A stretch of DNA of 64,000 nt from Roridomyces roridus (Eukaryota; Basidiomycota; Agaricomycetes; Agaricales; Mycenaceae): NCBI GenBank assembly GCA_029378245.1, contig JARKIF010000072.1, positions 98,949-162,948 of the forward strand, in the 5' to 3' direction. Both the position numbers and the translations under genes were made by a program. Below are positions 13,637 to 32,370 of the stretch, in pieces (the first letter of the stretch is position 1; each line of letters opens with the position of its first letter). The notes beneath the pieces are model-generated. The model had not been told where the DNA came from. It made no database searches and was given only the letters and a program-made list of their open reading frames with translations.

Positions 13637-14683
13637 CTAGTTCTCCATTTCAAAATACTCCATGTTCTCGGCCATGCTGTCTTGCTGGTAAGTTGACCAC
13701 TCATCCCCATTACCCGCGCCCTCCTCATCCCTGATCTCTCCACCTAGCCACCCAGAGTCACTATCGTCGCTGCTGTCGTCACGGTTCCGCATTGGATCGG
13801 ACAGAGGTTCAACCGGCGGAGAAGGTTCGACATTAATTTTGCGCAGGGTGCGGAGGACGTTGGCGCGATTGGTTGAGTTGGCCTGAAACTCGTGCATCTT
13901 GCCGCCATCCAGACTTTTGTACCCCAAATTGATCATGTTCTTCGCTGTATGGCCGAAATCTCGGCCCGACTTGAAATAATGTAGTTTTTCATCTCGGTAC
14001 ATCTTCAGCAACACGCGTGTCTCGTCCTTGACATCGGGAGACGTATGTGCTTTGCCGCCTGCCTTGAGTTCAAATGTCCGATCGAATGCCTCCTTGTTGT
14101 CGAGGAAGAGTCGCACATTGGGGGAGATCGTGTTCCGGAAAAACGACTCGTCGAAGCTGTCGACGTTGCCAGACATCATGTCGGTGAGTAGGCGTATGTG
14201 ATGCTCCTGGAGATGATCATCTTCCAAGAATTTTCCGGGCTGGCCCGTGGTGTTGACGAGCCAATTGTCCAAGATGGCATTCTTCAAACTGGGAGAGGCC
14301 TCATATCTGAACATGCAATAGATCTCCATAAAGGCCGTGGTGTAGTTCTGCTTGTTTGCTCCGGCAAAAATGAAAATCAGCAGCTGGTGATATATTAGAA
14401 AGGAAGCTACACAAATGAGCAAGGCACAGACCTTTAAAGCTTCCAAGATACGACCGGTATCTCCCTCCTTGACCGCACACGTGAGTTCTCGATACAACAA
14501 AAACTGCTGCTTGAATTGAATGGAGTTTGAAAGGGACCTATCACCCGAAAATTTGTCGGACGCCATCGTGGGCCCAGCAGCCACCGGGAATTTCAGACTC
14601 TCGGAACAGGAAGTCTGACGTGCGGTGGACATTGCCGCATCGAAAGCTCGGCTGGACGCATAGCGAGTCACCAAACCATCCGC
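13637..14683 (-). pseudogene. DUF6589-domain gene, 3' part, cut by the gypsy element
   Basis: On the minus strand the frame reads from the LTR junction to a stop at 13,637. It contains the DUF6589-like blocks LLYRELTCAVKEGDTGRILEALK, AILDNWLVNTTGQPG, a LLTDMMSG helix and an acidic tail. A 48-nt intron (14,384-14,431, in frame and stop-free) follows EALK. DUF6589 proteins are abundant and poorly understood in mushrooms. The first 30 codons of the raw open frame (to 14,773) are LTR sequence. The true upstream exon lies at 32,371-32,419, on the far side of the 17.7-kb insertion, and joins in frame. Confidence 0.75.
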
Positions 14684-16149
14684 TGATGTATGTGCTCTAA
14701 ACCTACTATAGAAATCGACAACACTCGAAGAATCTAACCAGATGAGTCGAGATACAGACGAATCTATATCCAACTAACCCAATCACGAAGCTCCGGGGCG
14801 AGTGACAACTATTGAATAGCGGGAATGTGGCGAGTATAAGTCCCTAGTACAGGGCCTTGTAAAGGTTGTAGGGAATTGAATGATATAGTCTCGGATACGA
14901 TGTCGAAACAAAGTATTGCGAATAGAGATCCTTGATGTAAACCAAGAATGACGATTCTAAAGCGTTTTGTAGATGGTAAAGCTTCACAGCTAACACAAAA
15001 GATAGATTGAGTTTGGCTAAAGCCGGGGTTTTGCAATAAAGCAGGTATTTGGGTCTTTCGATCCCTTTCACACTGGTATCCCAAGACGACAGCGACCGAT
15101 ACAACACGGATTTCGTAGATTCCGACACTTCGCAACTCTGAACACACAAATAACCCTTGACAGACACACGGTACGACACAATCCAACAGATACTGATTCC
15201 AACACACTGATTCACACTCAAGTCACACACACAATAGCCAACAAACAAATGTTTAGATTTTCAATAGCGATTGCTTAACTACGCAATGCACCGTCGAAAG
15301 CCTCGGACAAAACCCTTGATCGCAGCTGGTAGCTTGCTAGTGGGGGAAGTATCCGCTGCCCTCTTGGGTAGCACTCTATCTACTTTATACAGGTCCGAGA
15401 ATCATATGATAATACAAACGAATGGCGCAATAATTAGAAATGTCCTTGGTATCTGGAATGGAAACACCCTGATTGGTTGATTAGAACCGGCATCGTGTAC
15501 GGCCGGTGTGCCAAGCCATGATTCCGCGTGGCGGACCTGTCGATCCGTGACTCCAACATTGATCCATGACTCGACTGATTTTAGTGAAGTCGTATCCGAC
15601 CTCTCCCTTGATTGTATACCCTCCAGACGTACGCCCATAGGTTGTAGGTCCAGAACGATACCCATATCTCCGACTACCTGTCCCGGATACCAGCAGATAC
15701 TTAGTTCGAAGACTAGTATCCGACCCGGATCCTCCTTGTCCCGACTGCTGATGACAACTATGTCACTCCCTTCGGACCCGCTTCGGCGGTCTACTCATGT
15801 TTCAGGCTTTTCGGCCGACCTGCCCATCATCCCGTGAACTTCCGAACCTCCGAATTGCACTCGCACCAAGGTTCGAACGGCTGACAATCGTACAACGGTT
15901 AAGAACTTGTTTAATTGGTGTATCCCATTGGTAGAGCAGGTATCCACAACTCCTACATGTTTCGGAGTGAGCCCGTCGGTCATATTCAGGTAAATACCCT
16001 TCAACCCGTACAGTACTCTTAAGTATCCACCACACTGACTGTCTCTGGGCTCAACATCAGTCTTGTACTGAGATGACTTAGCTAGGATACTACCTCTGAA
16101 ATCGTGCAAAACGCGCGTTTTCAAGGGCAGTCAACTTCCATGCTTATCA
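14684..16149 (-). repeat. 3' LTR of the gypsy element
   Basis: 1,466 bp, TGAT...ATCA, collinear with the copy at 30,906-32,370. It directly follows the polypurine tract in element orientation. Differences from the other LTR are mostly transitions plus a few one-base indels. The LTR holds an uninterrupted 134-codon minus-strand frame (14,844-15,248), also open in the other LTR, whose significance is unclear. Confidence 0.92.
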
Positions 16150-16157
16150 TCTCCCCT
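16150..16157 (-). promoter_or_regulatory. Polypurine tract
   Basis: On the minus strand AGGGGAGA abuts the TGATAAGC start of the 3' LTR, the expected plus-strand primer position for reverse transcription. Confidence 0.65.
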
Positions 16158-16643
16158 ATTTTTAAATCTTGACCGTCCCCGGTCAACTCGTTTCCTCGCG
16201 CTTTTGCAATTCGTTAATCCATGGGTTCCGTCATGATCGACTCTGTCGTGATACCGAGGAGGTGGAACCAAATTAATAGTCCCCGTCGATCCGTGTTCCG
16301 ATACACGAGGCTCGGACATTTGCTCCCGGATACAACCTCCTGACCCCAAATACACCTTTGGTAACTTCCCCACCGCTTCAAGTCCGACGAAAATAGAGTT
16401 TGCCGGCGGCTGGGACTTTCCTCGGCGGACTTTCTGGTTGCCCTGAAAATCCATGAGTCAGACCCTGCAATTAAATAGCACTGCCCGCCATCAAACTTCT
16501 AGTTCGTAATTTAGGGGCGCCTTCGATTCTCCCAGCTTGCAGATTGCAAGTCTTTCTTTAGACTTGTTTTCCAGCCAATCATTAGCCATGAAAATTTTTC
16601 AATTGGCTCGATCGCCGCACTCCCTTCTCTTTCTCCTACCACC

Positions 16644-18823
16644 ATGTCTACCAGTTCCTCGCCAGCCAAAACTCAGGCCACCAAGAAGCTCACAATCGAG
16701 TGGACACCCCCTGTTGGGCCCGTCGGCGCTCCTTCTCGATCCTTCTTCGACTTTTTCCGGGGTTCCGACTGCGTTGGCTCGGCCAACTACGTGCTCCGAG
16801 TCGCCCACAAGGAAGAGGAGGTCGGCTCCAAGATCTGGTGCCAGTCGGTCCTTGAGAAGATCACCCCTTTCGTAGTGCGTACTCTCTCTTTTTCGTTCCG
16901 AGCTCCACTCCTGATCGTTGTATCTAGCGAACCGCGCTGAACTCTTGGGAGAGCCCAAAGGCCGTTTCTGGCTCGACTTTCCTCTTCTTCCGAGGACTCA
17001 AGAGGGTCTACCAGGGAAGCGGGAAGTCCGATCCTGACTATGAGAGCTTCCCCTGGCCTCCTTCTTCGGTATGTACCCACCGTTTCTCTGCTTTCCCATT
17101 CTTCGTTCTAACGACAGCGTGTTTAGTCCGCGTCCTTTGCCAAGATCTACCAGCTCGAGACGGACCACAAATCGCCCCACACTCTGCTTAGCACGGCCAA
17201 AGCCCCGTCCTTCAAAACCATATTCCAAGGCCGCGCCCCGCCTTCTTCAGCAAAGCCTTCGCCAGTAAAGCCTCTCTCGAAACGAAAGTGAGATACCCCA
17301 TCTTCTTTTCGTTTGAACTCGGTACTGATTCCTTTTCTAGGCCCGACGATTCTGTCTCTGAGGAGGAGGAGGACGATGGGTCCGTCGCTGGATCAGTCAC
17401 ACCTCCTCCAGTTGGTAAAAAGGGTTCTGGGAAACCTGCCTCCAAGAAGGTATGTCCCTTCTTTGATTCGTTTTCATTTCCTAAACCCCTTTTCAGCGCC
17501 GCGCCAACGTCGAGGTCGAAGACGACCACTCTGAAGAGGAGGAGGGGCCCAGTTTTGCCGTGGTCGTGCCTCCTCGTCCCAAGAGTTCCCGTTCCGGCGC
17601 CAAGTCCAGACGGCCTAGTTCCACCATCCACGACCAGCAGCTTGATATCGTCCCCGAGGATCAGCCCCTGACTTGGAAAACGGTACGTCCATACCCGTAT
17701 TCTTCCATTTCTTCCACTAATCCTCCTTCCTTCAGATGAACAACGATCAGAAGGTCGAGCATCTGACCACCCAGCTTCGCAAATTGGCCAAGAAGGTCAT
17801 CATGGAGCGTGATACTTGGCATGGTGCGTGTATCTTTCTTCGTTCCCTCACCCTATCTGACCCTTTTGCTAGTGACCTCGGTTCCAGGCTCGATCCCTGG
17901 CTACGTCCTCTCGCTTAGCTTCACCCGCGCCAACGGCAACACCAAACTCCGCCTCTACGACCACATGCACGAGTCCTCGGCCCAAGCGAAGTCCGCCGCT
18001 CCCGAATCGACCATTCCTGAGCCGCTCATCCCTCATACGGCGACGGATGAGGCGGGAGGGATGCTCTCGACCTCTGTGGTCAGTTCCCATCTCTTCTCTT
18101 CTATCATGGCCTCGTACTGACCCATTTCTAGCCTCCGAATAGCTGCCTCACCTGCGCTCTTCGCGCTGCAGAACCCTGCGAACCCGCCGCGTACGGCCAA
18201 CCCTGCCACAACTGTAATCGCCTCAAGATTACGATGATTTGTGACCACGCGCTTAGCCCGGAGAGGATTCGCAAGTTGATGTGGGCCTCGGAGTCATATC
18301 GCGCGCTCCTTTTCCCATCTGGTGCGTCCTCCCTTTTCGCTCCTACCTTGTTTTTCCTAACTCTGCCCTCCCTTCAGAGCCTCCTATCAATTTGTCGCGC
18401 ATCTCTCGCCTCGTTGCTCAGATCCAGTCGTCCGAGGAAACATCCCGCCTCATTCGCGAGGACTTGCTCAACGAATTCCGCGACATGTTCCGTCGTTTCC
18501 GCTCCCTCATGGACCATGCTGGTGGAGCTGCCTTCGAGACTTTCTTCGAGCAGGTCCAAGGCAAGGATGACGACGAGATGCTGATGTTCCCCGCTCTTCA
18601 TGGGATCAACACCCTCATCCACAACTTCAACGACGTCGTCTCCAAGTCCACACGCCCTCCTGAGGCTGACGAGCTCTCTTCCCTCCTCAACGCTCTTCGG
18701 CTCGATGTCGCCCAGGTTGGCCAACTCCGTGCTTCCCTCGTCGCCAAGCCTGTCGAGGAAGCGGATGGTTCTATTCCAGCAGGGAACGATGGTGGAGCGC
18801 CGGGTGGAGATTCGTCTCAATAG
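16644..18823 (+). CDS. Cargo gene A: protein with a Zn2Cys6-like cysteine cluster
   Basis: Nine exons (16,644-16,874; 16,928-17,068; 17,127-17,287; 17,341-17,449; 17,497-17,682; 17,736-17,823; 17,873-18,078; 18,132-18,321; 18,378-18,823) with eight 47-58-nt GT-AG introns give 585 residues without a break. The start ACCATG is well placed. The middle is acidic and lysine-rich (EEEEDDG, SGKPASKK). Near residue 380 a cluster spaced C-X2-C-X7-C-X8-C-X2-C-X8-C resembles the fungal Zn(II)2Cys6 DNA-binding finger, which normally has X6 in the second gap. A helical C-terminal region follows. It lies antisense inside the retrotransposon, next to the 3' LTR. I do not recognise the full protein. DNA binding, for example to the element's own repeats, is inference. 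Confidence 0.7.
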
Positions 18824-19719
18824 GGGTTGCGTCTTCGGGCGCCGGGCGCTTTTTCGCCTTTGATTTTTGCAGATGTTCCAGTATCGGACTGCGCTCTACG
18901 CGCCAGAATATATCGAGTACTGTTCTTTTCTACACGCGTAGTTTAGATACAGTTTGTATAACACTTTCTTTGGGCCAGAGGCCAAATATCAAATGCTTTC
19001 CTGTTTCTAAACGTGCGAGCCTTCTAAGTCAAAACCTGAGATAAAAGAAAATCTTATATCAGGGATTGAACTGTCGACTTAAAGCTGGATCTGGCTTGAT
19101 ACGCTAGGCTGTCTGTCGGCTATTACTCGTTTCTAATAGAAACGAGCCCGATACACCGGTGTTTTGACACAAAAGGTCAATCATCACCTCATACTGCCGT
19201 ATCCACCATCGCGTATCACTGTAGATCCTGCTTCTTCTGTTCCTGGCTGCACATCCGCATCCCAGATAATCTTTCTCGCCGTAGAGGATTCAGTGGGCTA
19301 CCAACTTTAGTTTTTGGGAGAATATGCATCGTCTGTACTCTTGTCTTTGCCGGATACCTGAGTATCTCTGACATCGCCTAGTCCGAAACAAGTCTTTTCC
19401 TTCTTCCGCCTTCTCATTGGAAATTGTGGATACGCTGAGTCATGATGTAAGGTCCGAGCACGCTGATCATGACTCCTTGGAACGTATTCTAGAACTTCTT
19501 CTGATAGGACCCACAATATACCCCGTTTCATGACCGTATCCGGTCGAATACTCATGTATCCGGGTCTCGAGCTCGGTTTGTCTGGGTCAGAACTGGTTTG
19601 CCGTGCGGTTCATTTATCGGTAAAATTTTCCCAACCACATGGTAATACCCTTCCTCCCCCATTTGAACCTTTTGCTGTCCTCAGCAAAACGTAACAGACC
19701 GAATCGCGTAAAGTACCCG
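18824..19719. other. Cargo intergenic spacer A-B
   Basis: Non-coding by inspection. It contains several GTATCC/GGATAC motifs (19,352; 19,428; 19,536; 19,556). No Gag, Pol or RNA gene is seen. Confidence 0.45.
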
Positions 19720-20427
19720 ATGGAATATAACTTGTACACCCCATACGAGTTCCTCACCCAACTCTACCCCCGTACCGTCGACTTTGCCTCATCTCTCTAT
19801 TCCAACATGAGTCCGCTCTCTGAGGCCGCCAGCGTTACCTTCCCCGACGCCATCCAACCTGTCTGGGTCGACGCCCGTGACGAGTCCGAGAACCTCCTTG
19901 GCAACAAGAACACCAGTTCCAAAGTTTTTCGCGACTCAATGGATCGCACTGCTCAGGCTTGGGTACGTTTTCATCTCCCCTGGTCCGGATACTTGCAGCT
20001 AAACGTCTCTCAGCTGCGTCCTACGAGGATATTCGCAACGCTCTCGAGAAGGCCTCCCGGCTCTCTGAGCGTCACTCCAAGATGCTCGTTTCTGCGGACG
20101 GCCTCGTGCGGACCGATTGCGCGTATCGCACTCTCCTCACCGAGATTGGTGGTCGCCTCGCTGTCCACCTTCGCCACTACGATGGTGTCTTTAACGAGTA
20201 CGAGCACGTTCGTCGCCAGATGGAGGATCGTAACTTGACGCCGATCGACTTTCCCACAAAGTACGTATCTGGTCACCCTCATTCCCTAGGTCACTTATTC
20301 TCTTCATAGCGACAATTCCATCCCGATTCCTGGAGGCTCCAACGTTCCCCACCGTGTCTTTACTCGCCATGGAGTGCTCATCCCTGGTATCGAGTCCGCC
20401 AAGGCCAAGAACGGCCGCTCTAACTAG
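19720..20427 (+). CDS. Cargo gene B: unknown protein
   Basis: Predicted exons 19,720-19,962, 20,028-20,260 and 20,310-20,427 give 197 residues. The first intron's acceptor is the least certain: CTACGAG at 20,027 keeps the downstream frame, whereas the nearer TTGCAG and CTCAG acceptors do not. Exon 1 ends at a Trp codon (AQAW), as in genes C, D and E, so B may be a distant relative of that family. The protein has long helical stretches (RNALEKASRLSERHSKML) and a basic end. No known domain is recognised. Confidence 0.6.
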
Positions 20428-21186
20428 AGCTTTCCCCTCCTTCTTTTCCAAATCACAATTCAAGTCGTAGCTCATACGCGTCCACTCCTTATACTGCGAT
20501 TTTTCCTCGTCTAACTCCTACTTCACTCGTTTAACTCGATTCCCCTCGACCAACTCCTAGTACATTCCTTGTATCCGTCTCCCTAGAAAAGTATTCCTAG
20601 CTAGATACCAGCATACAATGCAATGTCTTCTCGCCTGGACTCATTTCACCCTGTTTCAAGGAGGGTATCCACGAGTATAGGATTCCTCAGCCGAGCTCCA
20701 CCGCCAACCGGTTGTTACGTACAGGCTGATTGTCGGATCCTGCCAAATATCCGGTGTTCACGTTAGCCCGGCACCGTCGTCGATCTTTTACGTCACTTCC
20801 ACGCGTAGATACCGACGGTCCGGCATTTCACCAGATCTTTTTGGCTTGGCACCTCAAATTCCCAGGTATCCCAGCCAGACGGCCGACTCCCCGTCCCTAC
20901 ATTGTCGTAGAAGACTTGTATCCGTCTTCTATTCCATGTATCGGGAGTAAGCAAAGTCGTATCCAGCCCCAGCAATTCCCAATTGCCAATCCTCCAATCT
21001 CCTTCAGGCACATCATTGTTTCCAGGACCCAAACCGTATGGATGGCGACTCTGCAGATCGGAATTTTCGATTGGAACTGTGGAGCGCTTGTTCAAATGGA
21101 TTTATCAGGTCAGGGAGATGGTCACAAATAGGCCGAGACCAAAAATTTCGGTATCCGCCCCATCTTTCCTTCGTCCTGCTTCACCA
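20428..21186. other. Cargo intergenic spacer B-C
   Basis: Non-coding by inspection, rich in GTATCC motifs (20,571; 20,665; 20,876; 20,928; 20,959; 21,151). It presumably holds the promoter of gene C. Confidence 0.45.
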
Positions 21187-21718
21187 ATGAGCCTCCCCAC
21201 CGTTCTTGACGAGTTCAAGCCTGCCCCTGGCTTCGAGATCCGTTGGGCCAGCGCTCGTACCGATTCTGACGCGTTGCTCAACCTCAGCCCCAACGCTCCT
21301 CTTCGTGCTACCTTCAAGCGCGCTACCGACTGCATGAGATCTTGGGTTCGTGGTCCCATCCTCTCTTTTCACAGTATTCCGGTTGAACCGTCCTTAATAC
21401 AGGAGCCTTTCCTTACGGAACCCAACCTTTCGCTCGTTATCGCCGAATACGAGCTTCAGGCTCTATTGTCGTCGGTCGAGATTCGTATTCTCCAGATCAA
21501 GTTCGAGTTCCAGCACACTGGCGTCCCTTACGATTCGAGCTTTGAGGCCGCCCTCATCACCTTCTCGTCTGGCTGCGACCGTTACCGCGCCGGAATTGAG
21601 AAGATCAAGGTCGAGCTTGGTATCTATCGATTTACCGCTGAAGGTACGTTTCACACATTCTACCCCCGGTCGACCATTGATTCTGTCCCCAGAATCGCGT
21701 ACTCCCGTCGCGGAATAG
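21187..21718 (+). CDS. Cargo gene C: small paralogous protein family, member 1
   Basis: Three exons (21,187-21,345; 21,403-21,643; 21,693-21,718) give 141 residues. Exon 1 ends at a Trp codon and exon 2 opens with EPFLTEPNLSLV; the same Trp/intron/(L)EP junction occurs in genes D and E. A shared C-terminal block reads ...LLSSVEIRILQIKFE...FSSGCDRYR, matching LLAAIEIKITQIAYD...FLVGCNRYR of gene E. The first intron (57 nt) is stop-free and in frame, so the unspliced message is also open. Probably an all-helical protein of unknown function. Confidence 0.65.
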
Positions 21719-21974
21719 AGTCGTTCAAGGACAGCCAGAGGCTCCAGTAGTAGCGCCCGGATACTTAGATTGTCATGTAAATTTAAGCAATAATCCGTTT
21801 TGGCTTCTTCTGGATCACGGCGTCCCCTCAATTTCAAACCGCCCCGTCCACGCGATCACCTAAGACGGCGATTGTCGCACACATGGCTGTTTCACAGCCC
21901 GGAATAACACTACCACCGGATTACCCTTGCCACCGCCTTATAAAGGGCCGGATACAGGCAATCCGCAATTATTC

Positions 21975-22477
21975 ATGGCCGAATTCACTTCCATCCTCGT
22001 TACCAACGCCCATAAAGCATTCATCCCCAGCCCTGGCACTGCTACCCGTGTCGCCGCGGTCTTCCTCGCCTCGGACCACCTCCTCAAGACGCCGACGGAG
22101 TACAACACTCGTCTCACGCTTGTCCGAGTAGCGACCTGCCTCAATGCCTGGGTGCGTTCCTTGTATCCGAGCTCCCCAACGTGTATCTGACCTGGCTACT
22201 AGGAACCCCTGTTGACTAACCTCAACGTCACTCACACCGCTCGTTGCCCCGAGATGGTTGTGCTTGCCGTCGAAGTCAAGGCCAAGATGGAGCGCCTCAC
22301 TTCGCTCCCGGTCGACGGCACCCTCGATAGTGGCCTTGCCCATACCATTATCTTCCCCGAGCGCGCTCAGTTTTACAATGGTTATGAGCGCCTCCTCAAC
22401 GCCGCGCCGTGAGTTCATTTGCACTCCTGCTTGCAATACGCTCATCTCTCCCTAGCGTCGACCTCAGCGGACTCTAA
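21975..22477 (+). CDS. Cargo gene D: small paralogous protein family, member 2
   Basis: Exons 21,975-22,151, 22,203-22,408 and 22,456-22,477 give 134 residues. Exon 1 ends ATCLNAW and exon 2 begins EPLLTNLNV, aligning with gene C at the same intron position. A stretch PEMVVLAVEVKAKMERL corresponds to the helical block of C and E, but the C-terminal GC(D/N)RYR motif is not conserved. No membrane segment or signal peptide. Confidence 0.6.
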
Positions 22478-22702
22478 GCTAGAATAACTCTCCGGCCGTA
22501 GATACTATCCATGTGTACCCAGCTCCGTGATAAATTGGTTATTGTTGACCCAGAAATCCCTACTTGAGACGTCCACGCGGTGATTTTCCAAGTACCTGGT
22601 TCGATACCTGGTTCAGCTGATCGAATTGTCGTATCCGGTGTTTCCGAAATGATAGGCGAGTAGTTTTTAGCGATTTTGCATTGAAATAGAGCGCCCTGGA
22701 CC

Positions 22703-23163
22703 ATGGAGTTCCCTACCCACACCCATCCCTGCGTCTTCAAAATGCTCGTCTCTCGCTTTACCCGTATCGTTCCCATGCCCGAGTTTACTCCACCCGCCGA
22801 CCTCCGCGGAGACTGGTTGCACATCATCATCGCTTCGCACGAACTGCTTCAACTCGTCGGGCTCGGAGACCACAAGGAGACGAACAAGATCATGTCCAGA
22901 TGCGCTAGACTCTGGGTGAGCTCGCTACATACTGGTATTCTCGCCGATATTCATCCTTGCAGCTCCGTTTCCTCGAGGAACCTTTGATGCTGCTCATCCT
23001 CGGCCAGGAGGGTGTCGCCACTCTCCTTGCCGCCATTGAAATCAAGATTACCCAAATCGCGTACGACCGCAAGAACCTTCATGGGCCCAATTACGTTCGC
23101 ATTCCCGAGATTGTGAACTCGTTCTTGGTTGGCTGCAACCGCTATCGACTCGCTCGCTTCTAA
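22703..23163 (+). CDS. Cargo gene E: small paralogous protein family, member 3
   Basis: Exons 22,703-22,915 and 22,963-23,163 give 137 residues; an internal ATG at 22,775 is an alternative start. Exon 1 ends RCARLW at the shared intron position and exon 2 begins LRFLEEPLM. It ends with IVNSFLVGCNRYRLARF, close to gene C. The stop lies about 120 bp from the convergent integrase stop. Confidence 0.62.
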
Positions 23164-23282
23164 ATAAGCGGTATGTCCTACGTTCTTCTTCCGTACCCTC
23201 CCTCAACTGCTTCTTTAGCCTGGTATTCCGTCCCGACCCTTGATACGTAGATTTGTAGTCCATGTATCACCGCCGTTTCTTG

Positions 23283-24851
23283 CTAAATACCACGTTGGCT
23301 TCTCTTCTTGGTGCGAGTAGAACGCCTCGGCCCTTCCTCGAGTACCAGCTCCTCATCGCCTTCCAAGGCATCCTCTTCTGCCTTTTCTTCATCGCTCAAC
23401 TCAGCAGGGTCACGCTGCTCCCAGTCCGGGTCCAAGGTGATGTCCTCAAACTGATAGTCTCGACCCGAAGTTTCGTCCCTAGGTTGTCGTCGCTCTACTA
23501 ATATGTCCAATTCTTCTTTGGTCATATCAATCAGCTCTTCGATTTTGCTCTTGAACTTGATGGTTTTGCGCGCAAAGTATGGAACCACCCGAAACGCTCC
23601 AACCTTTCCAGGATACACAGCGCCGTTCATTTCACATACAATGTACGAGCCACCTTGCGTTCTTCGCAGAATTACCATGGGGCCCAAGTACTTGGGTTCA
23701 AGTTTCGTGTTGAGCGACTTCTCAACTCGAGTATTCCGAATGAGTACCAAGTCTCCAGGCTGGAAATCATGATTCTTGATCGAATTCCCGAATTCCTCAG
23801 CATAGCGCTTGACTGCTGCCAGTTTTTCAGCATCAACACGCTGCCGCATCTCTTCTACATGTTGCCTATGTTTTGCCAGTGCCCTAGCCCTCAAGCCTAC
23901 AAGGTCTTCTGTCGGGATTATCTCTCCTGGATAATCTACTAACCAAGTCGCTTCCACAATGTCGAGTGGCACAGTGGGATGACAACCCGTCACTGCATAA
24001 TAGGGTGAACAACCCAAGCCGCGTCGGGTTGTAATCCTATCAGCCCATACTACTTGCGGTAAGAACCAGAACCATTTCCTAACATCCCCCCCAGTGGCTT
24101 TGTATACCATCTGGCGCATTTGCTTATGACCAGATTCCACGGGTCCGTTGGCTTGTGAGTTGTACGGGGAGATACGAATACCTGTTATCCCATATTTCAG
24201 ATTCAGCCATTCGAGCGCCGCTAGGAACTGTGGTGCGTTGTCTGTCACGATCTCCTTCGGACAGCCCCATCTGCAAATGATATGTTCCAGCAAGAAACGT
24301 CCCAGCGCAGCTGCGTTGTCGGCTTTAAGACCTTTAGACTCCAGCCACCGACTGAGAGAATCCCTAGCCGATACTACGTAACGACAGCCGTTCGATATAG
24401 CCCCCATAATCGCAACATTGACATGGATCTTCTGGAACAGGCTCGGCGTGAACGTTGGGACCGGAGGTATCCGCAATAACTCTTCTTTTCGAGTCTGGCA
24501 CAGATGACAACTCTGAACATACCATTTGATGTCATGTTCCATCTCTGGCCACCAGAACCTCTGCTCAATTAGAGATCTGGTTGCATATATCCCTCTATGT
24601 CCCAAACTATCGTGCGAAGCCCTCATCATGTACATTCTGTGCTCCTTTTCCACTACCAGTTTGTGAGCTGAGTCCGCTGAGCGTCGGAATAATCGTCCTT
24701 GGGGATCCAAGAAGAATTTCCTAGCGTATTGGATAAAACGCCTCAGTGCCAAAGGATTTATGTTCTTTGGCCTATTGTTTATAGGATCCAGTAGCCACTG
24801 CTTCACGTATCCGAGCTTCCAATCCTGATTCTTCGCTCCTACCGACCTCAT
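23283..24851 (-). pseudogene. gypsy integrase with an Asn at the first catalytic position
   Basis: A 522-codon frame. The N-terminal HHCC finger (HDSLGHRGIYAT...CHLCQTRK) is intact. In the DDE core the second Asp (VTDNAP) and the Glu (NGPVESGH) are present, but the first position reads KIHVNVAIM, with Asn (AAT) where related elements have Asp (HxD). That should abolish strand transfer. A chromodomain-like or GPY-type tail (PGDLVLIRNTRVEKSL...KLEPKYLGPMVI) follows, with an acidic and basic end. The ATG overlaps the RT stop as ATGA, in another frame. Confidence 0.8.
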
Positions 24852-27355
24852 GCCCTCCGGATACGTTTCCCTTTTGCAGGATCGAACTTGAAAGCGTCTG
24901 GTGGTAAGAGAGGTTCTTCCTCACGGATATGGCTCATGATAAATTGAGGTATCTCCAAGTCTTTCTCTCGGAATTTCTCTCTGATCATTCTAGCTTCCCC
25001 GCGTTCCTCCAGATACGCGTCCATACACTGATGTTCGAATTGCAGGAGCACGTCAGTCGACTCCGTAGCCTCTTCCTTCACCTCAGCGAAGTACCCACCT
25101 CTGGTATCGATCCCAGCCTTGAAGTCTTCGAAGTCAGCGGGCTGTTCGATATCATAGTCCCAGTCATCGTGTTGCTCGGGCGGCGGGTTATCATCAAATC
25201 CGTCCTCCGGGCTTGGATAGTCTGGATCACCTGGTTGTTTCTTGCGTCGAGACAGACCATCCGGTGAGAAGGTACAGCCCTTCACATGCTTCAACGTAAA
25301 GTGGAACATTAGTATCTCTTCAATCCAACGGTTGATGGTTGCGTTAGGCCCCATGCCAGGGTTGTCTAGCATCCCTTTAATGTACATGGCATCTGTTTCC
25401 ACCACCAAGCGCCGGCATCCAAGTAACCAGTATTGCATATGTTCCAGTGCACGCTTGAGCCCGTAAAGTTCGCGTTTTGGTTGTGAAAACCTAGCTTCTC
25501 GCTCGTTGAGGGGGATGGAGTCGAACTTTGCATAGTACCGCTTCTTCGGGTCATTAGGATCGACTTGATATATCTCTATACCTATAGCCATCCAAGATGT
25601 ATCCACAGCTAATACTATATCCGAGTCCCAATCGTAATTTAATGGCTTCAAGGCTTCGCAGTGCTCCACCGAATACTTCAATGTATCCATAGAGCCTTGC
25701 GCCTTATCCGTCCATTCAAACTCAATGTCCTTCCTCAGCAAACGAGTGAGCCAACGCGCCTTTGTCGAATAGTCCTTTATGAACATTCTGAGACAACCAA
25801 CTACACCTAGGAATTGTCGTACCTGAGAGACGTCCTCAAGAGGAGGCCATCTCGAGATGACACCAATCCTATCGGTGGACGGTTTTCGCCCTTCGAATGA
25901 ACACACATGCCCTACTACTGCAAATTCAGCTTTACAGATAATCACCTTGAGAGCTGAGATAGTGCCTCCGCAGTATTTCAGTCTCTGGGCAATTCTGTTC
26001 AGGTTCTGAAAGTGCTCCCATACAAAACGTCGAATCCCCCGATTCTCTGGTATAGTCTCATAAGTACCATGTTTGTCCTGATATCGCGATCCTGGCCCTT
26101 TCACCGGTACATCGTCGATATACGGGATGGTTATATGAGGTATCTCGTCTTTGAGGATAAAGGTAACGTCGTCATGGAAGATGGGTACCGAATTCGTCCA
26201 GCCCTGCGGCAATTTCACCAATCTCAGAGCTCCAAAGGGTGTTTGAAAGGTAGTATAGTCGCGAGAGGACTCGGCAATATCCCTATGGTCGTACCCAGAA
26301 TAGAGATCGAATACAGCTCCGCACGCTCTTCCTGCAAACTGACTCGCAATCTCATCTGTAGCTGGTGGAATTCCAGAATGCGCTATGGTCACCGCATTCA
26401 AAGGTTCCAGCGCATGTACCAACCGGATACTCTTCCCATCCTTCTTTAGTACTCCGAAAAACTTCGAACGGTACGAGGAGTTGGACGGCTCGTACACTCC
26501 TGCATCGATCTTCTTCTTGATCACTCGACAGAACTCATCTAGCTGACCACGAGGTATGGGTATAGATCTCTCAACCCAGACCTTATGTTCAACCGTGGGA
26601 ATTTCAACCGGTGGGAAGAATTCATGTTTCCACGATCCTCTCTCGGAATCATCCCATGCGAATGCGTCGTTGTGCTTAGATACAAAGTCATGCATGAGTT
26701 TCCGCTCCTCATCCCACAGAAAGCCTTCATCATGAAGCTTGTCTATGCCCTCCTTCCGTTCTTGGGTGTATCGTCCTGTCGGGACAAAATCCCCTGGATT
26801 AGTTGGCAACGTAGGGAGGTCCTTCAATGGGTCCCCAATAATCTGCCTCTGTATCCGGTATTTTTCGGGTAACTCGGTGAAGACTGGTTTCGTCTTCAGG
26901 GCCACAGGTTTGTACTTTTTGCCGGCAAACGCCTCCAGGACCGGGATACCAGGATCTAAGACTGAGTCCGATTCCAGTCGCGGTACATGGCCGTGTACAG
27001 AGCACTTGAAACATTCCTTGGCGGTGTCCTCTTCATGACACCGTTTCCTCCTCTTTCTGTTGGCCTTTTTGATAGAGCTTCGACTTCGTGTTCCCCCCAG
27101 ATGAGACGGTAAATGCTCATCAAAGGTAAATACTTGGTACGTAGGCCCATCAACCTTGCTTTCCTTTGTATCAACGCCACTCACAAACTCGTTTAGGAGC
27201 TGTGCAGCCGCTTGATCCTGTTTCAATGCCTCACTATCCTCAGAAGCTACCAGATACTCCGCCTTTAGCTCATCCGGATTGAACTTCCCATCGTCTCTGG
27301 GTTCTGCATACCCCTCAATCCGCAACTCTCCGTATTCATCAAAACCGAACTTCAC
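24848..27355 (-). CDS. gypsy reverse transcriptase and RNase H
   Basis: An 835-codon frame. It opens with a linker, then the RT fold: KKKIDAGVYEPSNSSYRS, FFGVLKKDG, DLYSGYDHRD, TPFGALRLVKLPQGWTNS and the catalytic YIDDVPVKG. The connection and RNase H region has the Asp-Glu-Asp positions AVDTSWMAIG, KRELYGLKRAL and VVETDAMYIKG. Before the fold is a CFKCSVHGH motif in a basic context. The ORF is long and open, but its start and end are in different frames from protease and integrase, so it is not continuous with either as sequenced. Confidence 0.82.
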   Translation of the reverse strand: MKFGFDEYGELRIEGYAEPRDDGKFNPDELKAEYLVASEDSEALKQDQAAAQLLNEFVSGVDTKESKVDGPTYQVFTFDEHLPSHLGGTRSRSSIKKANRKRRKRCHEEDTAKECFKCSVHGHVPRLESDSVLDPGIPVLEAFAGKKYKPVALKTKPVFTELPEKYRIQRQIIGDPLKDLPTLPTNPGDFVPTGRYTQERKEGIDKLHDEGFLWDEERKLMHDFVSKHNDAFAWDDSERGSWKHEFFPPVEIPTVEHKVWVERSIPIPRGQLDEFCRVIKKKIDAGVYEPSNSSYRSKFFGVLKKDGKSIRLVHALEPLNAVTIAHSGIPPATDEIASQFAGRACGAVFDLYSGYDHRDIAESSRDYTTFQTPFGALRLVKLPQGWTNSVPIFHDDVTFILKDEIPHITIPYIDDVPVKGPGSRYQDKHGTYETIPENRGIRRFVWEHFQNLNRIAQRLKYCGGTISALKVIICKAEFAVVGHVCSFEGRKPSTDRIGVISRWPPLEDVSQVRQFLGVVGCLRMFIKDYSTKARWLTRLLRKDIEFEWTDKAQGSMDTLKYSVEHCEALKPLNYDWDSDIVLAVDTSWMAIGIEIYQVDPNDPKKRYYAKFDSIPLNEREARFSQPKRELYGLKRALEHMQYWLLGCRRLVVETDAMYIKGMLDNPGMGPNATINRWIEEILMFHFTLKHVKGCTFSPDGLSRRKKQPGDPDYPSPEDGFDDNPPPEQHDDWDYDIEQPADFEDFKAGIDTRGGYFAEVKEEATESTDVLLQFEHQCMDAYLEERGEARMIREKFREKDLEIPQFIMSHIREEEPLLPPDAFKFDPAKGKRIRRA

Positions 27356-27384
27356 TGCTAACTCTCCTCCTTCGGCGCCAATGC

Positions 27385-28362
27385 CTAATTCCTCGAAGAG
27401 CCATGAAAATCCGATTGGGCCTCAACACTTGCCACCTCGGTTACGGGTGCGGATTCCTGTTTCTGCTTCGGCGGTGATGGCTCAACCAATCTCAGGTTCT
27501 TTCCATCACTTACCACCGATCCCCGCGCGAATGTAGGCATCGTGATCCTGTCACCCCCGTCTGGGTCTCTAATAGTCACCGTCTGGGACCCGTCTCTGAA
27601 GTCCTGGGTCCGAGCTTCCGTTAGAATGTCAAACGGTCGGCCCAACAGCACTTCGTATGCGGGTTGTTCTATCACATGTACTTGTAAGTACACTGTAATG
27701 TCTCCAAAAGTGAAAGGCACGTTTCTAGCCAGGCCTGCTGATTTCTTCAACTGGCCATTCGCACTCTGCATGTAGATCTGGACATCGGGTAGCCATTGTA
27801 CACCGATTTTCTCAGCAACGGACCGTGCCATCGACACAATCTGAGACCCAGTATCTCGGATACTTTCCACCCTTCCCATCTTATTCACTATAGGGAATAG
27901 AACACGAAGGGCTACCGAAGCTTCCGCTGCAAATATCTGCCTCGGAGTTTCATTTTCGTCAAGCGAGGATAGATACGCAAGTACAGGATCAATAGCGACC
28001 ATGCACCCGGGTTCTAGACCTTCGTCTTCACCTGTTGACATATAAAATGAGCTCACACCTGGCAGATCATCTACTCCTATGGCATCCATCTGCAGGAACA
28101 CAGGTATGCCTTCATCTTCCATGAACGGGAACGCCGACTGCTCTTCTATGGGATTAGACACGGTCAACGGCTTTATAGGCCGCCTAGACTTCTGTGTAAT
28201 CGCACGGAGCTGTTTCGCATATTCCCCGTTCATGGCGACTAGCTTTTCAACGGTAATGCCACGGAGTTCCAACCCCTTCGTCTGGTCCACTAGATCTGGT
28301 ATAATTTTTCGGATCATCGTATTGAGGCACCAGACGATAAGCCCTCTCCTGTCCACCACCAT
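27385..28362 (-). CDS. gypsy retropepsin-like aspartic protease region
   Basis: A 325-codon frame. The active-site signature RDTGSQIVSM lies in a hydrophobic context, and downstream VLLGRPFDIL resembles the second conserved block of Ty3 proteases (ILGRDWL-like). It would cleave the Gag-Pol polyprotein. The frame differs from both flanking segments; the RT frame is already open upstream of its first ATG, and the slip lies at about 27,400. Confidence 0.7.
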   Translation of the reverse strand: MVVDRRGLIVWCLNTMIRKIIPDLVDQTKGLELRGITVEKLVAMNGEYAKQLRAITQKSRRPIKPLTVSNPIEEQSAFPFMEDEGIPVFLQMDAIGVDDLPGVSSFYMSTGEDEGLEPGCMVAIDPVLAYLSSLDENETPRQIFAAEASVALRVLFPIVNKMGRVESIRDTGSQIVSMARSVAEKIGVQWLPDVQIYMQSANGQLKKSAGLARNVPFTFGDITVYLQVHVIEQPAYEVLLGRPFDILTEARTQDFRDGSQTVTIRDPDGGDRITMPTFARGSVVSDGKNLRLVEPSPPKQKQESAPVTEVASVEAQSDFHGSSRN

Positions 28363-28942
28363 TGTTCTTGTTTTTCAGGATACCCCCCGGTCGCTGCTGC
28401 GACGCAGGTGAATCCAACTTCTGAAAGGGTACCGGAGACTCCTCGTCATCAGTCATCTCCTCTACTGTAACCATCCTCCGCTCAGGTTGAACTGGCGTAG
28501 GTTTAGAAACCTTCTTCGTGGGTGAGCCCGTATTCTCTTTGCTCGTATCATCCATGATCTCCGAAGGAACCATGAATCCCACTCTCTTTTCTCCGCTCGT
28601 TCTGCTTCTCCAGTTTTGGTTTTTATCAGCCGGATTCTCGTTCTCAGGGGTCTTGGCAATGGGAGGTGGTGCAAGTTTCGCCCTCCTCTCAGCCCCCTTC
28701 ATTGAACTTTTGGGAAACCCGACGCTTGAGGCGGTGGGCTGGACGACGCACCAGGTTCTAGTCGAAATGAACTGACCCTGGGCCTCGTCTCCGCCCTGCG
28801 CAGGGAATAGTTCTCCTCTGCACGCCTGTACCAACTGTATAACCTGATTCAAGTCATACCCCGCACCCAGAAGAGGGCCTTGGTGAGCTGACAACCGGTT
28901 GTTGCATGAACTGCTGTTGCTGCGGTGGTTGAACACCGCCAT
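28247..28942 (-). pseudogene. gypsy Gag-Pol linker segment
   Basis: A 231-codon frame linking the end of Gag to the protease. It is low in complexity (KKVSKPTPVQPE, MTDDEESPVPF) and contains LNQVIQLVQACRGELF. It overlaps the neighbouring frames at both ends, suggesting frame slips near 28,860-28,950 and 28,310 rather than separate genes. Confidence 0.5.
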
Positions 28943-29553
28943 TGCTCTGGGAAAAAGGGTGGTTGAACACCCTGTGGCATGTGAGGAGGTGTATCCCGAG
29001 TGTCAGGTCGTTGAACGAACTGATTCCTGCTGGAATACATCTGCTGCACACGCTTTGAATGCATCTCGTCGTCCCTAGTATCGTACAAGTGATCTACACG
29101 ATCCTGATATTCGGGATAGTATTGATCTCCTGCCGCACTTGGTCCCCCAACATAAAAGGTTTGCATCATTGCCGCTTGCTGAGACCTTGCCGTTTCACGG
29201 GTTACTCCTTGCCGACGGTAATGTTCCTCCACCTTTTGAGCACGACTGACATTCTCGGGATACCGAGGAATGAGTTGACCATTCGACAATTTGACTTGTC
29301 TATCGTCAAGGATGATCCATCCCAAAGAGATGAATTCGTCCTTTACATGGCACGATCGTATCCTATGCGGTCCCCCACAGAAGAAGCACGGACCATTCCT
29401 CCCTTGGCTGATATTCCACTCTTGGTGGCGCGTACGGCTTCTGCTCCTCTTGCCTACCATGACCATCTTCCTGTCTATTACTCGATTGTTGAGGAGCGGT
29501 ATGCGACGGAGGCGCTCTGATATTTTGATTGAGAAGACGGACCGAGGATTCAA
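28849..29553 (-). pseudogene. gypsy Gag zinc-knuckle segment
   Basis: This frame carries the knuckle CFFCGGPHRIRSC (C-X2-C-X3-H-X4-C) at about 29,350-29,390 and a QQ-rich region. The main Gag frame changes into it at a GGGAGG stretch near 29,395-29,406. The function would be binding of the element's RNA. Confidence 0.65.
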
Positions 29554-30808
29554 AGGCGGTTTCGATGTTCTTCAACCCATCCTCGAACCTCTTGCTCTGG
29601 ATTTTTGTCAGATCTTTGATAGAGGCTATCTCGCTCGCAAATCCTTCCAAACGATCCTCGATTTCAGTCTTCAGGCGTACCTCTCCCGCTGTCCTAGCCG
29701 TCGGATTAACCGGTGGGTCGTACACTGGGTTCATAGGTGCCCTTGCTGGCGTCGCTCCTCCCAACAAACTCATCGCTCTCCTTCCTGACCAGTTGTCTGC
29801 AATAGAATCCGCAATCTTGAACACAGTGGAGAAGAGTAATTTGTCTCCGCGACGATTGCCCGCAATAGGTGCAGCCCCAAGAACTGGCGCTGCTGGTTGT
29901 GGACCTAGCAAAGCCCAAATGGCTTGCTGGTTCATACCCCCTTCGACTTCGGCCGCGAAGTTCTCATCAAATACTCCCAGTATCATCTCAACAAGCTGTA
30001 AGTTTGTGACCAACGCCGATCCTTTCAAGAGCTTCGTAGCTTCGTGGGTGAACGAGATCTCGAAACGGCGCAGTTTCCCGAGTTCGGAGCGGGAAATTGG
30101 TCGATTCTGACTACATATCTCCCGGAGCCTGTTCAGAGATCCCAGATCCATATCCTCGACTTCAGGATATAGGGTCAGGATTTCTTCTTTCCACTCTGCG
30201 AAGGTCCCCGGAGCCGGATACTTGCTTAACATCTTCCACTGGTCCCGAATGTTTTCATCATCAACATAGTCCAGCAACAACTCTTTCTTCCTCGTATCGT
30301 CTGTAATGCTCCCATTGGTGAACACGGTCTCGCAATGCCTGATAAACAATCTCAGGTCGCCAGCCGCCTCCCCTTTGAAATGCGGTCGATTGTTGTCATA
30401 AGACGCCGGTATTTTAAACGCGGTAGTCATTCTGACTCTTGGTATGGTGGTAATATTCGGAATAGGGTTTTGAACGACGGTGGTATTGATCGTATTCTCT
30501 TGCTCGACGCCGGTACCTGACGGTCCTGCTTCGTTTTCTAGCTGAGAGGTGGATGCAATGGTGGCACGCGGTGTTCGGGTTGAAACTCTCGGTTTGGTAA
30601 CACAAGAAGTTTCGAGAGGCTGGACTAAAGTCGCTTTTGCCTTTTGAGAGGTTTTGGTCTGCCAACCAGGAGGATGATTGACGTTAGAACGCAGAGTACC
30701 CGCGTTTAATTGCCCTTCTCCTCGAAGTAAACTGGGAAAATGCCCAGCCGACTTGTCTTGGATAGCCTTTTCCTTTCCTTTCGGTGGAATAGCGAAATCC
30801 GACAGCAA
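29363..30808 (-). CDS. gypsy Gag capsid-like protein
   Basis: A 481-codon frame starting about 98 bp inside the 5' LTR edge. After a basic, Ser/Thr-rich N-terminus comes a retrotransposon Gag fold around residues 135-300 (KIPASYDNNRPHFKGE, DLRLFIRHCE, DQWKMLSKYP, FAEWKEEILTLYPEVED). A helical coiled region follows. The last 15-20 codons are out of frame relative to the zinc knuckle, which continues in the next frame. Confidence 0.75.
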   Translation of the reverse strand: MLSDFAIPPKGKEKAIQDKSAGHFPSLLRGEGQLNAGTLRSNVNHPPGWQTKTSQKAKATLVQPLETSCVTKPRVSTRTPRATIASTSQLENEAGPSGTGVEQENTINTTVVQNPIPNITTIPRVRMTTAFKIPASYDNNRPHFKGEAAGDLRLFIRHCETVFTNGSITDDTRKKELLLDYVDDENIRDQWKMLSKYPAPGTFAEWKEEILTLYPEVEDMDLGSLNRLREICSQNRPISRSELGKLRRFEISFTHEATKLLKGSALVTNLQLVEMILGVFDENFAAEVEGGMNQQAIWALLGPQPAAPVLGAAPIAGNRRGDKLLFSTVFKIADSIADNWSGRRAMSLLGGATPARAPMNPVYDPPVNPTARTAGEVRLKTEIEDRLEGFASEIASIKDLTKIQSKRFEDGLKNIETAFESSVRLLNQNIRAPPSHTAPQQSSNRQEDGHGRQEEQKPYAPPRVEYQPREEWSVLLLWGTA

Positions 30809-30886
30809 TGATTGTCCAAGTAAGACTCAGACGTGCAACAACACAGAGTATTCGATAAATCGAAAGAGATTTTATCACTTCAACCC

Positions 30887-30903
30887 CCTCGCGGTGGGCT
30901 CCA
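30887..30903 (-). promoter_or_regulatory. Primer binding site candidate
   Basis: Two nucleotides inside the 5' LTR the minus strand reads TGGAGCCCACCGCGAGG, beginning with the TGG that pairs with a tRNA 3' CCA. The plus strand therefore resembles a tRNA 3' end. Which tRNA is used cannot be decided without the host tRNA set. Confidence 0.6.
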
Positions 30904-30905: not shown

Positions 30906-32370
30906 TGATGTATGTGCTCTAAACCTACTATAGAAATCGACAACACTCGAAGAATCTAACCAGATGAGTCGAGATACAGACGAATCTATATCCAACTAAC
31001 CCAATCACGAAGCTCCGGGGCGAGTGACAACTATTGAATAGCGGGAATGTGGCGAGTATAAGTCCCTAGTACAGGGCCTTGTAAAGGTTGTAGGGAATTG
31101 AGTGATATAGTCTCGGATACGATGTCGAAACAAAGTATTGCGAATAGAGATCCTTGATGTAAACCAAGAATGACGATTCTAAAGCGTTTTGTAGATGGTA
31201 AAGCTTCACAGCTAACACAAAAGATAGATTGAGTTTGGCTAAAGCCGGGGTTTTACAATAAAGCAGGTATTTGGGTCTCTCGATCCCTTTTACACTGGTA
31301 TCCGAAGACGACAGCGACCGATACAACACGGATTTTGTAGATTCCAACACTTCACAACTCTGAACACACAAATAACCCTTGACAGACACACGGTACGACA
31401 CAATCCAACAGATACTGATTCCAACACACTGATTCACACTCAAGTCACACACACAATAGCCAACAAACAAACGTTTAGATTTTCAATAGTGATTGCTTAA
31501 TCTACGCAATGCACCGTCGAAAGCCTCAGACAAAACCCTTGATCGCAGCTGGTAGCTTGCTAGTGGGGGAAGTATCCGCTGCCCTCTTGGGTAACACTCT
31601 ATCTACTTTATACAGGTCCGAGAATCATATGATAGTACAAACGAATGGCGCAACAATTAAAATATCCTTGGTATCTGGAATGGAAACACCCTGATTGGTT
31701 GATCAGAACCGGCATCGTGTACGGCCGGTGTGCCAAGCCATGATTCCGCGTGGCGGACCTGTCGATCCGTGACTCCAACATTGATCCATGACTCGACTGA
31801 TTTTAGTGAAGTCGTATCCGACCTCTCCCTTGATTGTATACCCTCCAGACGTACGCCCATAGGTTGTAGGTCCAGAGCGATACCCATATCTCCGACTACC
31901 TGTCCCGGATACCAGCAGATACTAGTTTGAAGACTAGTATCCGACCCGGATCCTCCTTGTCCCGACTGCTGATGACAACTACGTCACTCCCTTCGGACCC
32001 GTTTCGGCGGTCTACTCATGTTTCAGGCTTTTCGGCCGACTTGCCCATCATCCCGTGAACTTCCGAACCTCCGAATTGCACTCGCACCAAGGTTCGAACG
32101 GCTGACAATCGTACAACTGTTAAGAACTTGTTTAATTGGTGTATCCCATTGGTAGAGCAGGTATCCACAACTCCTACATGTTTCGGAGTGAGCCCGTCGG
32201 TCATATTCAGGTAAATACCCTTCAACCCGTACAGTACTCTTAAGTATCCACCCCACTGACTGTCTCTGGGCTCAACATCAGTCTTGTACTGAGATGACTT
32301 AGCTAGGATACTACCTCTGAAATCGTGCAAAACGCGCGTTTTCAAGGGCAGTCAATTTCCATGCTTATCA
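30906..32370 (-). repeat. 5' LTR of the gypsy element
   Basis: 1,465 bp, TGAT...ATCA, the partner of 14,684-16,149. It is flanked on the outside by CCGC (32,371-32,374), identical to the bases before the other LTR. Confidence 0.92.

What the first reader, a model, noticed from the sequence alone, without database searches (positions are those of the whole stretch)
16150..23282. A gypsy retrotransposon carrying five spliced genes in antisense between integrase and the 3' LTR
Seen: the LTR pair, target duplication, PBS and PPT define one 17.7-kb unit, and all five plus-strand genes lie inside it. All five are open across GT-AG introns, including a nine-exon gene of 585 codons, whereas gag-pol changes frame several times. 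Known: antisense extra ORFs occur in a few plant Ogre/Tat elements, but a block of intron-bearing genes is unusual, since sense genomic RNA would carry antisense introns that cannot be spliced out. That very orientation would let introns survive retrotransposition. I know of no description of this set. This is my best candidate for an undescribed system: a retroelement transporting its own gene module.
Basis: partly seen in the sequence, partly recalled or inferred. Interest (0 to 1): 0.92.

Follow-up and report, generated by a model that had tools for sequence, protein, structure and literature searches.

The report
Mushroom retrotransposon carrying antisense gene block
A 17.7-kb jumping element of a mushroom carries, on the strand opposite to its own replication genes, a block of five intron-bearing genes (one broken in this copy) whose protein sequences are largely preserved in its other copies and which likely make helper proteins for the element; I found no description of such an intron-rich block.

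Summary
Window 14684-32370 is one Ty3/gypsy element (LTR pair 98% identical, 4-bp duplication, PBS, PPT) of Roridomyces roridus. Plus-strand spliced genes A-E lie between integrase and 3' LTR; A (nine exons, 585 codons) equals NCBI's own prediction. Correction: in this copy B is a frame-shifted remnant of an eight-exon gene.

The block belongs to the element: 6 of 6 loci with close gag-pol carry it in the same order. Its reading frames are under purifying selection (pooled dN/dS A 0.18, B 0.11, C 0.32, D 0.07, E 0.32). A sister gypsy family (RT 84% identical) has homologous A, B and E, with 6 of 7 B introns at matching places and phases. A, B and E match nowhere outside such elements in the genome search. 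Of 122 intron instances none is lost, as expected if transposition uses the opposite RNA.

Antisense extra genes are known (Grande, Retand, Boty brtn); a five-gene, 20-intron block is a new variant. Expression and function are inferred: likely nuclear accessory proteins.

The parts
14684..16149 (-). 3' LTR of the element (element lies on the minus strand)
   Evidence: 98.16% identical to 30906-32370, TG...CA, flank CCGC
30906..32370 (-). 5' LTR of the element
30888..30903 (-). PBS-like stretch next to the 5' LTR; primer tRNA not identified
   Evidence: its complementary 13-mer occurs 83 times in the genome against 6 for the reversed pattern
16150..16162 (-). polypurine tract next to the 3' LTR; same motif in the sister family
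28247..30826 (-). gag region, in frame-shifted pieces in this copy
   Evidence: one 707-aa ORF in C460 and in C90
27385..28374 (-). protease ORF (PF13975)
24848..27421 (-). reverse transcriptase and RNase H ORF (RT_RNaseH above its cut-off, RVT_1 just below)
23283..24920 (-). integrase ORF (PF17921 above its cut-off; rve below)
16644..18823 (+). gene A: nine exons (16644-16874, 16928-17068, 17127-17287, 17341-17449, 17497-17682, 17736-17823, 17873-18078, 18132-18321, 18378-18823), 585 aa, six-cysteine motif
   Evidence: pooled dN/dS 0.18
19720..20427 (+). gene B, remnant: about 0.9 kb is missing at 20019 and the frame is lost; 8 exons and 427 aa in 5 other copies
   Evidence: pooled dN/dS 0.105
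21187..21718 (+). gene C: three exons (21187-21345, 21403-21643, 21693-21718), 141 aa, related to the N-terminal part of B; introns set by eye
21975..22477 (+). gene D: three exons (21975-22151, 22203-22408, 22456-22477), 134 aa, related to the N-terminal part of B
22703..23163 (+). gene E: two exons (22703-22915, 22963-23163), 137 aa, related to the N-terminal part of B

Best explanation
The window holds a Ty3/gypsy retrotransposon that carries, between integrase and 3' LTR and on the opposite strand, a resident block of five intron-bearing genes, which are predicted to be expressed as ordinary spliced nuclear mRNAs and likely encode accessory proteins that serve the element. Shown: the block lies inside the LTRs and the target duplication, sits beside gag-pol at 6 of 6 close copies, is under purifying selection at the protein level, and has a homologous counterpart in a sister gypsy family with matching intron places in gene B. 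Inferred: the genomic RNA from the LTR reads the block backwards, so its introns are no substrates for splicing and survive reverse transcription, while transcripts of the other strand (own promoters, or an antisense promoter in the 3' LTR) are spliced and translated. Inferred: A (basic and acidic tracts, helical segments, a six-cysteine zinc-cluster-like motif) and B (helical N-terminal domain, basic tract, helical C-terminal part) act in the nucleus on the element's own DNA or RNA, for example by controlling its transcription or silencing; C, D and E are stand-alone relatives of the B N-terminal domain and may bind the same partners.
For: Same block and order at 6 of 6 loci with gag-pol at 98-100% identity, plus two LTR-joined remnants without gag-pol. 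Exact 4-bp duplications CCGC, TCGC, CCGT, TCGA at 4 of 5 loci examined. One copy (C190) has LTRs differing at 4 of 1465 sites and carries the block, so it moved recently. dN/dS pooled over pairs: A 0.18, B 0.105, C 0.32, D 0.07, E 0.32. GT-AG at 121 of 122 intron instances, none precisely lost. Sister family: amino-acid identity RT 84%, IN 71-77%, PR 64%, gag 36-56% with the longest piece at 50%; B 47% (42% by BLASTP), E 39-61% by piece, A Cys plus C-terminal part 28%, alignment score 122 against 29.9 +/- 4.5 in 500 shuffles, none reaching it; 6 of 7 B introns at matching alignment places (0-4 columns apart) with the same phases, using NCBI's own gene model P0005 for the sister. In the own genome, proteins A, B and E match only inside these gypsy loci and their remnants. 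C, D, E and the B N-terminus are one domain family (hhalign probability 95.6%).
Against: No RNA data, so transcription and splicing of the block are predictions. No Pfam family at E<=1 for A, C, D, E and none at E<=10 for P0005; AlphaFold2 models too poor to use (mean pLDDT 42.6 and 33.2), so function is inference from motifs. B is broken in the window copy, A has an in-frame stop in C357 and a changed splice donor in C451, so single copies tolerate loss. dN/dS for C and E rests on few changes, several of their pairs have no synonymous change, and the pairs are not independent. No homologue in another species was found, though that search needs shared 5-residue words and scored only part of the candidates in two of three runs. 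The sister element read at C13 shows no matching 4-bp duplication at its ends, and tblastn alone missed its A gene at E<=1.
Confidence: 0.72

Rival explanations
1. A host locus lies between two independent LTR insertions or was recombined between them, so the block is not part of the element.
For: The block has a gene-like, intron-rich structure and no known family.
Against: Repeated at 8 loci with the same LTRs, 6 of them with gag-pol, and 4-bp duplications around the unit at 4 of 5 loci examined; no match of A, B or E outside gypsy loci and their remnants.
Confidence: 0.02
2. The genes are recently captured host cargo (transduction) that gives the element nothing and is carried passively.
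For: Introns and antisense orientation would fit a captured stretch of genomic DNA; the ultimate origin of the block is unknown.
Against: Purifying selection across copies; a diverged homologous block in a sister family whose gag is about 50% identical; no host homologue of A, B or E found in this genome (C and D were not searched on their own).
Confidence: 0.07
3. The antisense RNA rather than the proteins is what matters: plus-strand transcripts pair with genomic RNA and tune silencing of the element.
For: Proposed for antisense extra ORFs in plants (PMC7264820); the arrangement would give overlapping transcripts by necessity.
Against: Selection acts on codons: variable columns in A 6.5/3.2/18.9% and in B 1.9/1.9/8.6% at positions 1/2/3; intron borders are kept.
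Confidence: 0.08
4. The block is a second mobile element once nested in the gypsy element, now copied along with it.
For: Retroelements often host nested insertions; one copy has a 6.6-kb insert inside the block.
Against: No repeats of 60 bases or more bound the block (shorter terminal repeats were not tested); no transposase-like Pfam domain in A, C, D, E or P0005.
Confidence: 0.06

Closest known systems
Antisense extra ORFs between pol and 3' LTR (aORF-3R) of plant gypsy elements: maize Grande gene23, rice RIRE2, Silene Retand (PMC7264820, text parts 1-2 of 3 read; PMC11963269, passages seen)
   Same: Antisense to gag-pol, between pol and the 3' LTR, in most copies of a family, conserved, no clear known function; Grande gene23 is transcribed from a promoter upstream of it and its protein is nuclear, according to the review.
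   Different: Here five genes with 20 introns in the family (A 8, B 7, C 2, D 2, E 1; 15 of them left in the window copy). For Retand, 104 antisense ORFs were detected over all clusters, and the word intron does not occur in the paper's text. No sequence comparison with those proteins was made beyond Pfam; PF04195 was not hit by A, C, D, E or P0005.
Boty / BcGypsy1 of Botrytis cinerea with antisense gene brtn (Zhao et al. 2011 not seen; known here from PMC7264820 text and from passages of PMC8365987 and PMC4227169)
   Same: A fungal gypsy element with an additional antisense gene.
   Different: One gene, in an ascomycete element described with a chromodomain (PMC4227169 passage); no Pfam chromodomain hit in the window integrase ORF. 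Sequence of brtn not compared.
LTR elements with captured ORF3s in bdelloid rotifers (PMC5408684, two passages and the start of the abstract seen)
   Same: Extra ORFs beyond gag-pol in several families.
   Different: What I saw describes no antisense gene block; the word intron does not occur in the text.
Antisense genes of retroviruses such as HTLV (from PMC7264820 and PMC11963269 text seen, otherwise recalled)
   Same: A protein from the opposite strand at the 3' side, with a regulatory role.
   Different: A single gene from an antisense promoter in the 3' LTR; no homology claimed.
Accessory gene opposite to the transposase in the 21.5-kb Sola1 DNA transposon of Ectocarpus (PMC12477816, passages seen)
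   Same: Cargo gene on the strand opposite to the mobility gene.
   Different: A DNA transposon, where introns meet no RNA stage.

Membership tests
Ty3/gypsy LTR retrotransposon | Two LTRs, short target duplication, PBS, PPT | tested here: met
   primer tRNA not identified
Ty3/gypsy LTR retrotransposon | Domain order PR-RT-RNaseH-IN | tested here: met
   Pfam hits in ORFs lying in that order on the minus strand
Chromovirus branch of gypsy | Chromodomain at the integrase C-terminus | tested here: not met
   no Pfam chromodomain hit at E<=1 in the integrase ORF 23283-24920; other copies not scanned
Antisense additional ORF (aORF-3R) | Antisense to gag-pol, between pol and 3' LTR | tested here: met
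Antisense additional ORF (aORF-3R) | Present in most copies and conserved like other element proteins | tested here: met
   6 of 6 loci; dN/dS; sister identities similar to gag
Antisense additional ORF (aORF-3R) | Antisense transcription from an own promoter (reported for Grande gene23) | not testable with these tools
   no RNA data
Antisense additional ORF (aORF-3R) | Homology with TRP28 (PF04195), as in Retand | tested here: not met
   no PF04195 hit for A, C, D, E at E<=1 or P0005 at E<=10; Grande and RIRE2 proteins not compared
Boty brtn | Homology with the brtn protein | not tested
   sequence not at hand
Zn2Cys6 fungal zinc cluster (gene A) | CX2CX6CX5-12CX2CX6-8C spacing (pattern recalled) | tested here: inconclusive
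   window copy CX2CX7CX8CX2CX8C, sister family CX2CX6CX8CX2CX8C; a deletion changes the spacing in C357 (P0002); Pfam gives no zinc-cluster hit
Transduced host gene | Host homologue outside mobile elements | tested here: not met
   matches of A, B and E in the genome lie in gypsy loci or their remnants; C and D not searched on their own

The most novel reading that the evidence does not exclude
A whole lineage of mushroom gypsy elements has a two-sided genome: gag-pol on the unspliced strand and, on the other, a lasting set of two to five spliced genes, including a zinc-cluster-like nuclear regulator and a tandemly multiplied helical domain, whose introns are sheltered from loss because the RNA that is reverse-transcribed reads them backwards. 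The retroelement thus keeps intron-bearing regulatory genes over long evolution, and many orphan hypothetical proteins of mushroom genomes would be such genes.
Probability: 0.55. Interest if true: 0.75.

Novelty: new variant of a known kind. Interest (0 to 1): 0.64.

Why it matters
Retroelements are expected to lose introns, because they pass through RNA. A block of 20 introns with no loss among 122 instances examined, and with gene-B intron places and phases shared with a diverged sister family, suggests that antisense placement lets an RNA-copied element keep ordinary spliced genes for a long time. It also offers five conserved proteins whose expression and partners could show what antisense accessory genes of retrotransposons do, a question that the plant review leaves open (PMC7264820).

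Tried and rejected
Structure: AlphaFold2 on P0005 (one sequence) and on A4 (P0001 with P0002) gave mean pLDDT 42.6 and 33.2; no fold search was made, as matches would mean nothing. PDB sequence search gave one match of P0005 to a designed circular repeat protein (E 1.5e-7 for the whole sequence, but no single stretch passing) and one weak match of P0001 (E 0.43), both taken as chance. Other species: three protein searches found only Roridomyces roridus entries. Primer tRNA: the PBS 13-mer was sought in the genome; ARAGORN on 12 of the 83 places found two tRNA-Ser genes near one match but none overlapping a match, so the primer tRNA stays unknown. Distant gypsy locus C346 (L045): a cysteine-motif gene and a spliced gene lie where A and B would, and their proteins match at 7 loci of which 6 have a pol match next to them in the expected order and strand, the source locus C346 being one of the 6; but direct homology is weak (hhalign probability 23% for the Cys part, 0.4% for the B-like part) and the LTR check could not be made, so this is only suggestive. 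A search for a genome paper of R. roridus gave one paper on luminous fungi (listing only). Host-gene, nested-element and RNA-only readings were set aside for the reasons given under rivals.
Full report
What is there. The window lies at C472:98949-162948 of a 90.8-Mb assembly in 501 contigs; its gene A is identical to NCBI hypothetical protein FB45DRAFT_879365 of Roridomyces roridus, a mushroom. The LTRs 14684-16149 and 30906-32370 are 98.16% identical, begin TG and end CA, and are flanked by CCGC on both sides. The element runs on the minus strand: PBS-like stretch, gag, protease, RT-RNaseH and integrase from 30905 down to 23283, then 7.1 kb with five genes on the plus strand, then the polypurine tract and the 3' LTR.

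Gene models. A small dynamic-programming script with GT-AG introns gave A (nine exons, 585 aa), D (three exons, 134 aa) and E (two exons, 137 aa) from the window DNA. It read C as one unspliced 187-aa frame; I set two introns by eye (141 aa), because the first then falls after the tryptophan where D and E have theirs, and this reading is open in all six copies. Gene B is intact only elsewhere: in C460, C451, C357, C190 and C90 it has 8 exons and 427 aa with one set of borders; the script's own models of B differed among copies, and the borders chosen agree with NCBI's sister model P0005 at 6 of 7 introns. The window copy lacks 676 exon bases and is out of frame behind the gap.

The block belongs to the element. 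The 7.1-kb block matches at 14 places that fall into 8 loci. Gag-pol DNA at 98-100% identity occurs at 6 loci, and all 6 carry the block next to the integrase in the same order; C90 is truncated in gene A, the gag-pol of C451 is split by insertions, C190 has a 6.6-kb insert in the block, and the 3' LTR of C460 has an internal deletion. C13 and C456 are LTR-joined remnants with part of gene A and no gag-pol. Exact 4-bp duplications flank C472, C460, C190 and the remnant C13; C357 agrees at 3 of 4 bases; C451, C90 and C456 were not examined for this. LTR pairs differ at 24 of 1464 (C472), 36 of 1450 (C357) and 4 of 1465 (C190) sites, so at least one copy inserted recently with the block aboard. 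The LTR alone has 204 candidate places, of which 40 were scored, all 40 at 95% identity or more; how many are solo LTRs was not checked.

Selection. On alignments of the copies, GT-AG borders hold at 121 of 122 intron instances (A 55, B 37, C 12, D 12, E 6), and none is precisely missing; instances lost together with their exons (window B, truncated A copies) are not in the 122. The exception is a changed donor in gene A of C451. Gap totals within exons are multiples of three in the full-length A copies and zero in C, D and E; the B deletion of the window is not, the partial remnant C456 has a one-base insertion in A, and A has an in-frame stop in C357. Nei-Gojobori dN/dS pooled over all pairs is 0.18 (A, 8 copies, three of them partial), 0.105 (B, 6, one partial), 0.32 (C, 6), 0.07 (D, 6) and 0.32 (E, 6). 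The pairs are not independent, and C and E have few changes. D is identical in protein in four copies (C472, C460, C451, C90) although up to 12 synonymous differences separate them.

Sister family. Gag-pol at about 71% DNA identity marks a second family (C13:1132778, C473, C112, C113, C57). I read C13 and C112 in part (L029 to L032). The C13 element has its own LTRs (99.2% identical over 623 bases at one end, 95.7% over 900 bases further in), the same PBS and PPT motif, but no matching 4-bp duplication at its ends. Its plus-strand block has homologues of A, B and E and one further small gene. Identities by piece: RT 84%, IN 71-77%, PR 64%, gag 36-56% with the longest piece at 50%, B 47% (42% by BLASTP), E 39-61%. 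The A homologue was missed by tblastn at E<=1, but its cysteine and C-terminal parts align far above shuffles (0 of 500). Six of the seven B introns fall on matching alignment columns (differences 0, 0, 1, 0, 1 and 4 columns) with the same phases, although the sister model P0005 is NCBI's own. So these introns are likely older than the split of the two families and outlived repeated transposition. B or E of the sister sit next to pol in C13, C112, C473, C57:1280670 and, across a 15-kb gap, C113; a B fragment remains at C57:1257239.

No host source found. Proteins A, B (as P0005) and E match in this genome only within these gypsy loci and remnants (36 of 36, 33 of 33 and 29 of 29 first-look candidates scored). 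C and D were not searched on their own. The large protein collection gave only R. roridus proteins (4, 1 and 2 hits); two of these runs scored only the candidates sharing most words. This limits what can be said of other species.

Proteins. C, D, E and the N-terminus of B form one domain family (hhalign probability 95.6%, E 1.3e-8), with an intron after the conserved tryptophan in each window gene. A carries a six-cysteine motif spaced CX2CX7CX8CX2CX8C, in the sister CX2CX6CX8CX2CX8C, close to the fungal zinc cluster as I recall it, but Pfam gives no such hit. Basic and acidic tracts in A and B suggest nuclear proteins; this is inference.

Mechanism. Genomic RNA would start in the 5' LTR (30906-32370, minus strand) and read the block backwards; GT-AG introns then appear as CT-AC and are expected to stay. 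Plus-strand transcripts would be spliced and translated. What the proteins do is not shown; the likeliest role, by analogy with Grande gene23 and retroviral accessory proteins as reviewed in PMC7264820 (text parts 1 and 2 of 3 read), is control of the element in the nucleus. I hold the resident, selected module at about 0.9, the spliced antisense expression at about 0.85, and the nuclear regulatory role at about 0.5.

A wider clade. A third, distant locus (C346, L045) has a cysteine-motif gene and a spliced gene on the integrase side in the same orientation; their proteins match at 7 loci, 6 of them (C346 itself included) beside a pol match in the expected order and strand; C257 has none listed. 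As the proteins do not align convincingly with A and B, I count this as a lead.

Comparison with print. Searches of the open-access library gave antisense extra ORFs in plants and the single gene brtn in Botrytis Boty (Zhao et al. 2011 itself not seen); none of the titles, abstracts or passages that I saw described a multi-gene, multi-intron antisense block in a retrotransposon. Subscription papers are mostly not covered. Hence: new variant of a known kind.

Noticed in passing
window 1300-5972, minus strand: A copia-type LTR element: RVT_2, Retrotran_gag_2, zinc knuckle and integrase domains in two adjoining ORFs.
   Followed up: no
window 13637-14773, minus strand: An ORF with DUF6589 runs across the 3' LTR edge at 14684, so the element inserted in or beside a DUF6589 gene.
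   Followed up: no
C190:743618-750202 (L019, L020): A 6.6-kb insert inside the block of the copy with the most similar LTR pair of the three measured, with a 9-bp duplication ATCTAAACT and inverted ends, like a Mutator-type DNA transposon (the comparison is recalled).
   Followed up: partly
window 17500-19500 against C451, C357, C90: Divergence rises to 3-12% per 500 bases in and behind gene A while gag-pol differs by 0.2-5%: the copies look like mosaics of lineages, perhaps by template switching.
   Followed up: partly
gag-pol of C460 and C90: Three overlapping ORFs (707, 456, 1217 or 1379 aa) in different frames, which suggests programmed frameshifts; the window copy shows extra frame breaks.
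   Followed up: partly
83 places in the genome: The 13-mer complementary to the PBS is far over-represented (83 against 6 for the reversed control), likely marking a large set of gypsy elements with the same primer site.
   Followed up: partly
L045 (C346:376000-382500); C223:926197-927616; C458:1132568; C469:2250504 and 2401691; C450:101994: Distant gypsy loci with cysteine-motif or B-like genes on the integrase side in the same antisense orientation.
   Followed up: partly
L029 about 900-1282 (C13 sister element): About 380 bases more between LTR and block than in the C112 copy (L030), ending in a short repeat of the LTR end.
   Followed up: no
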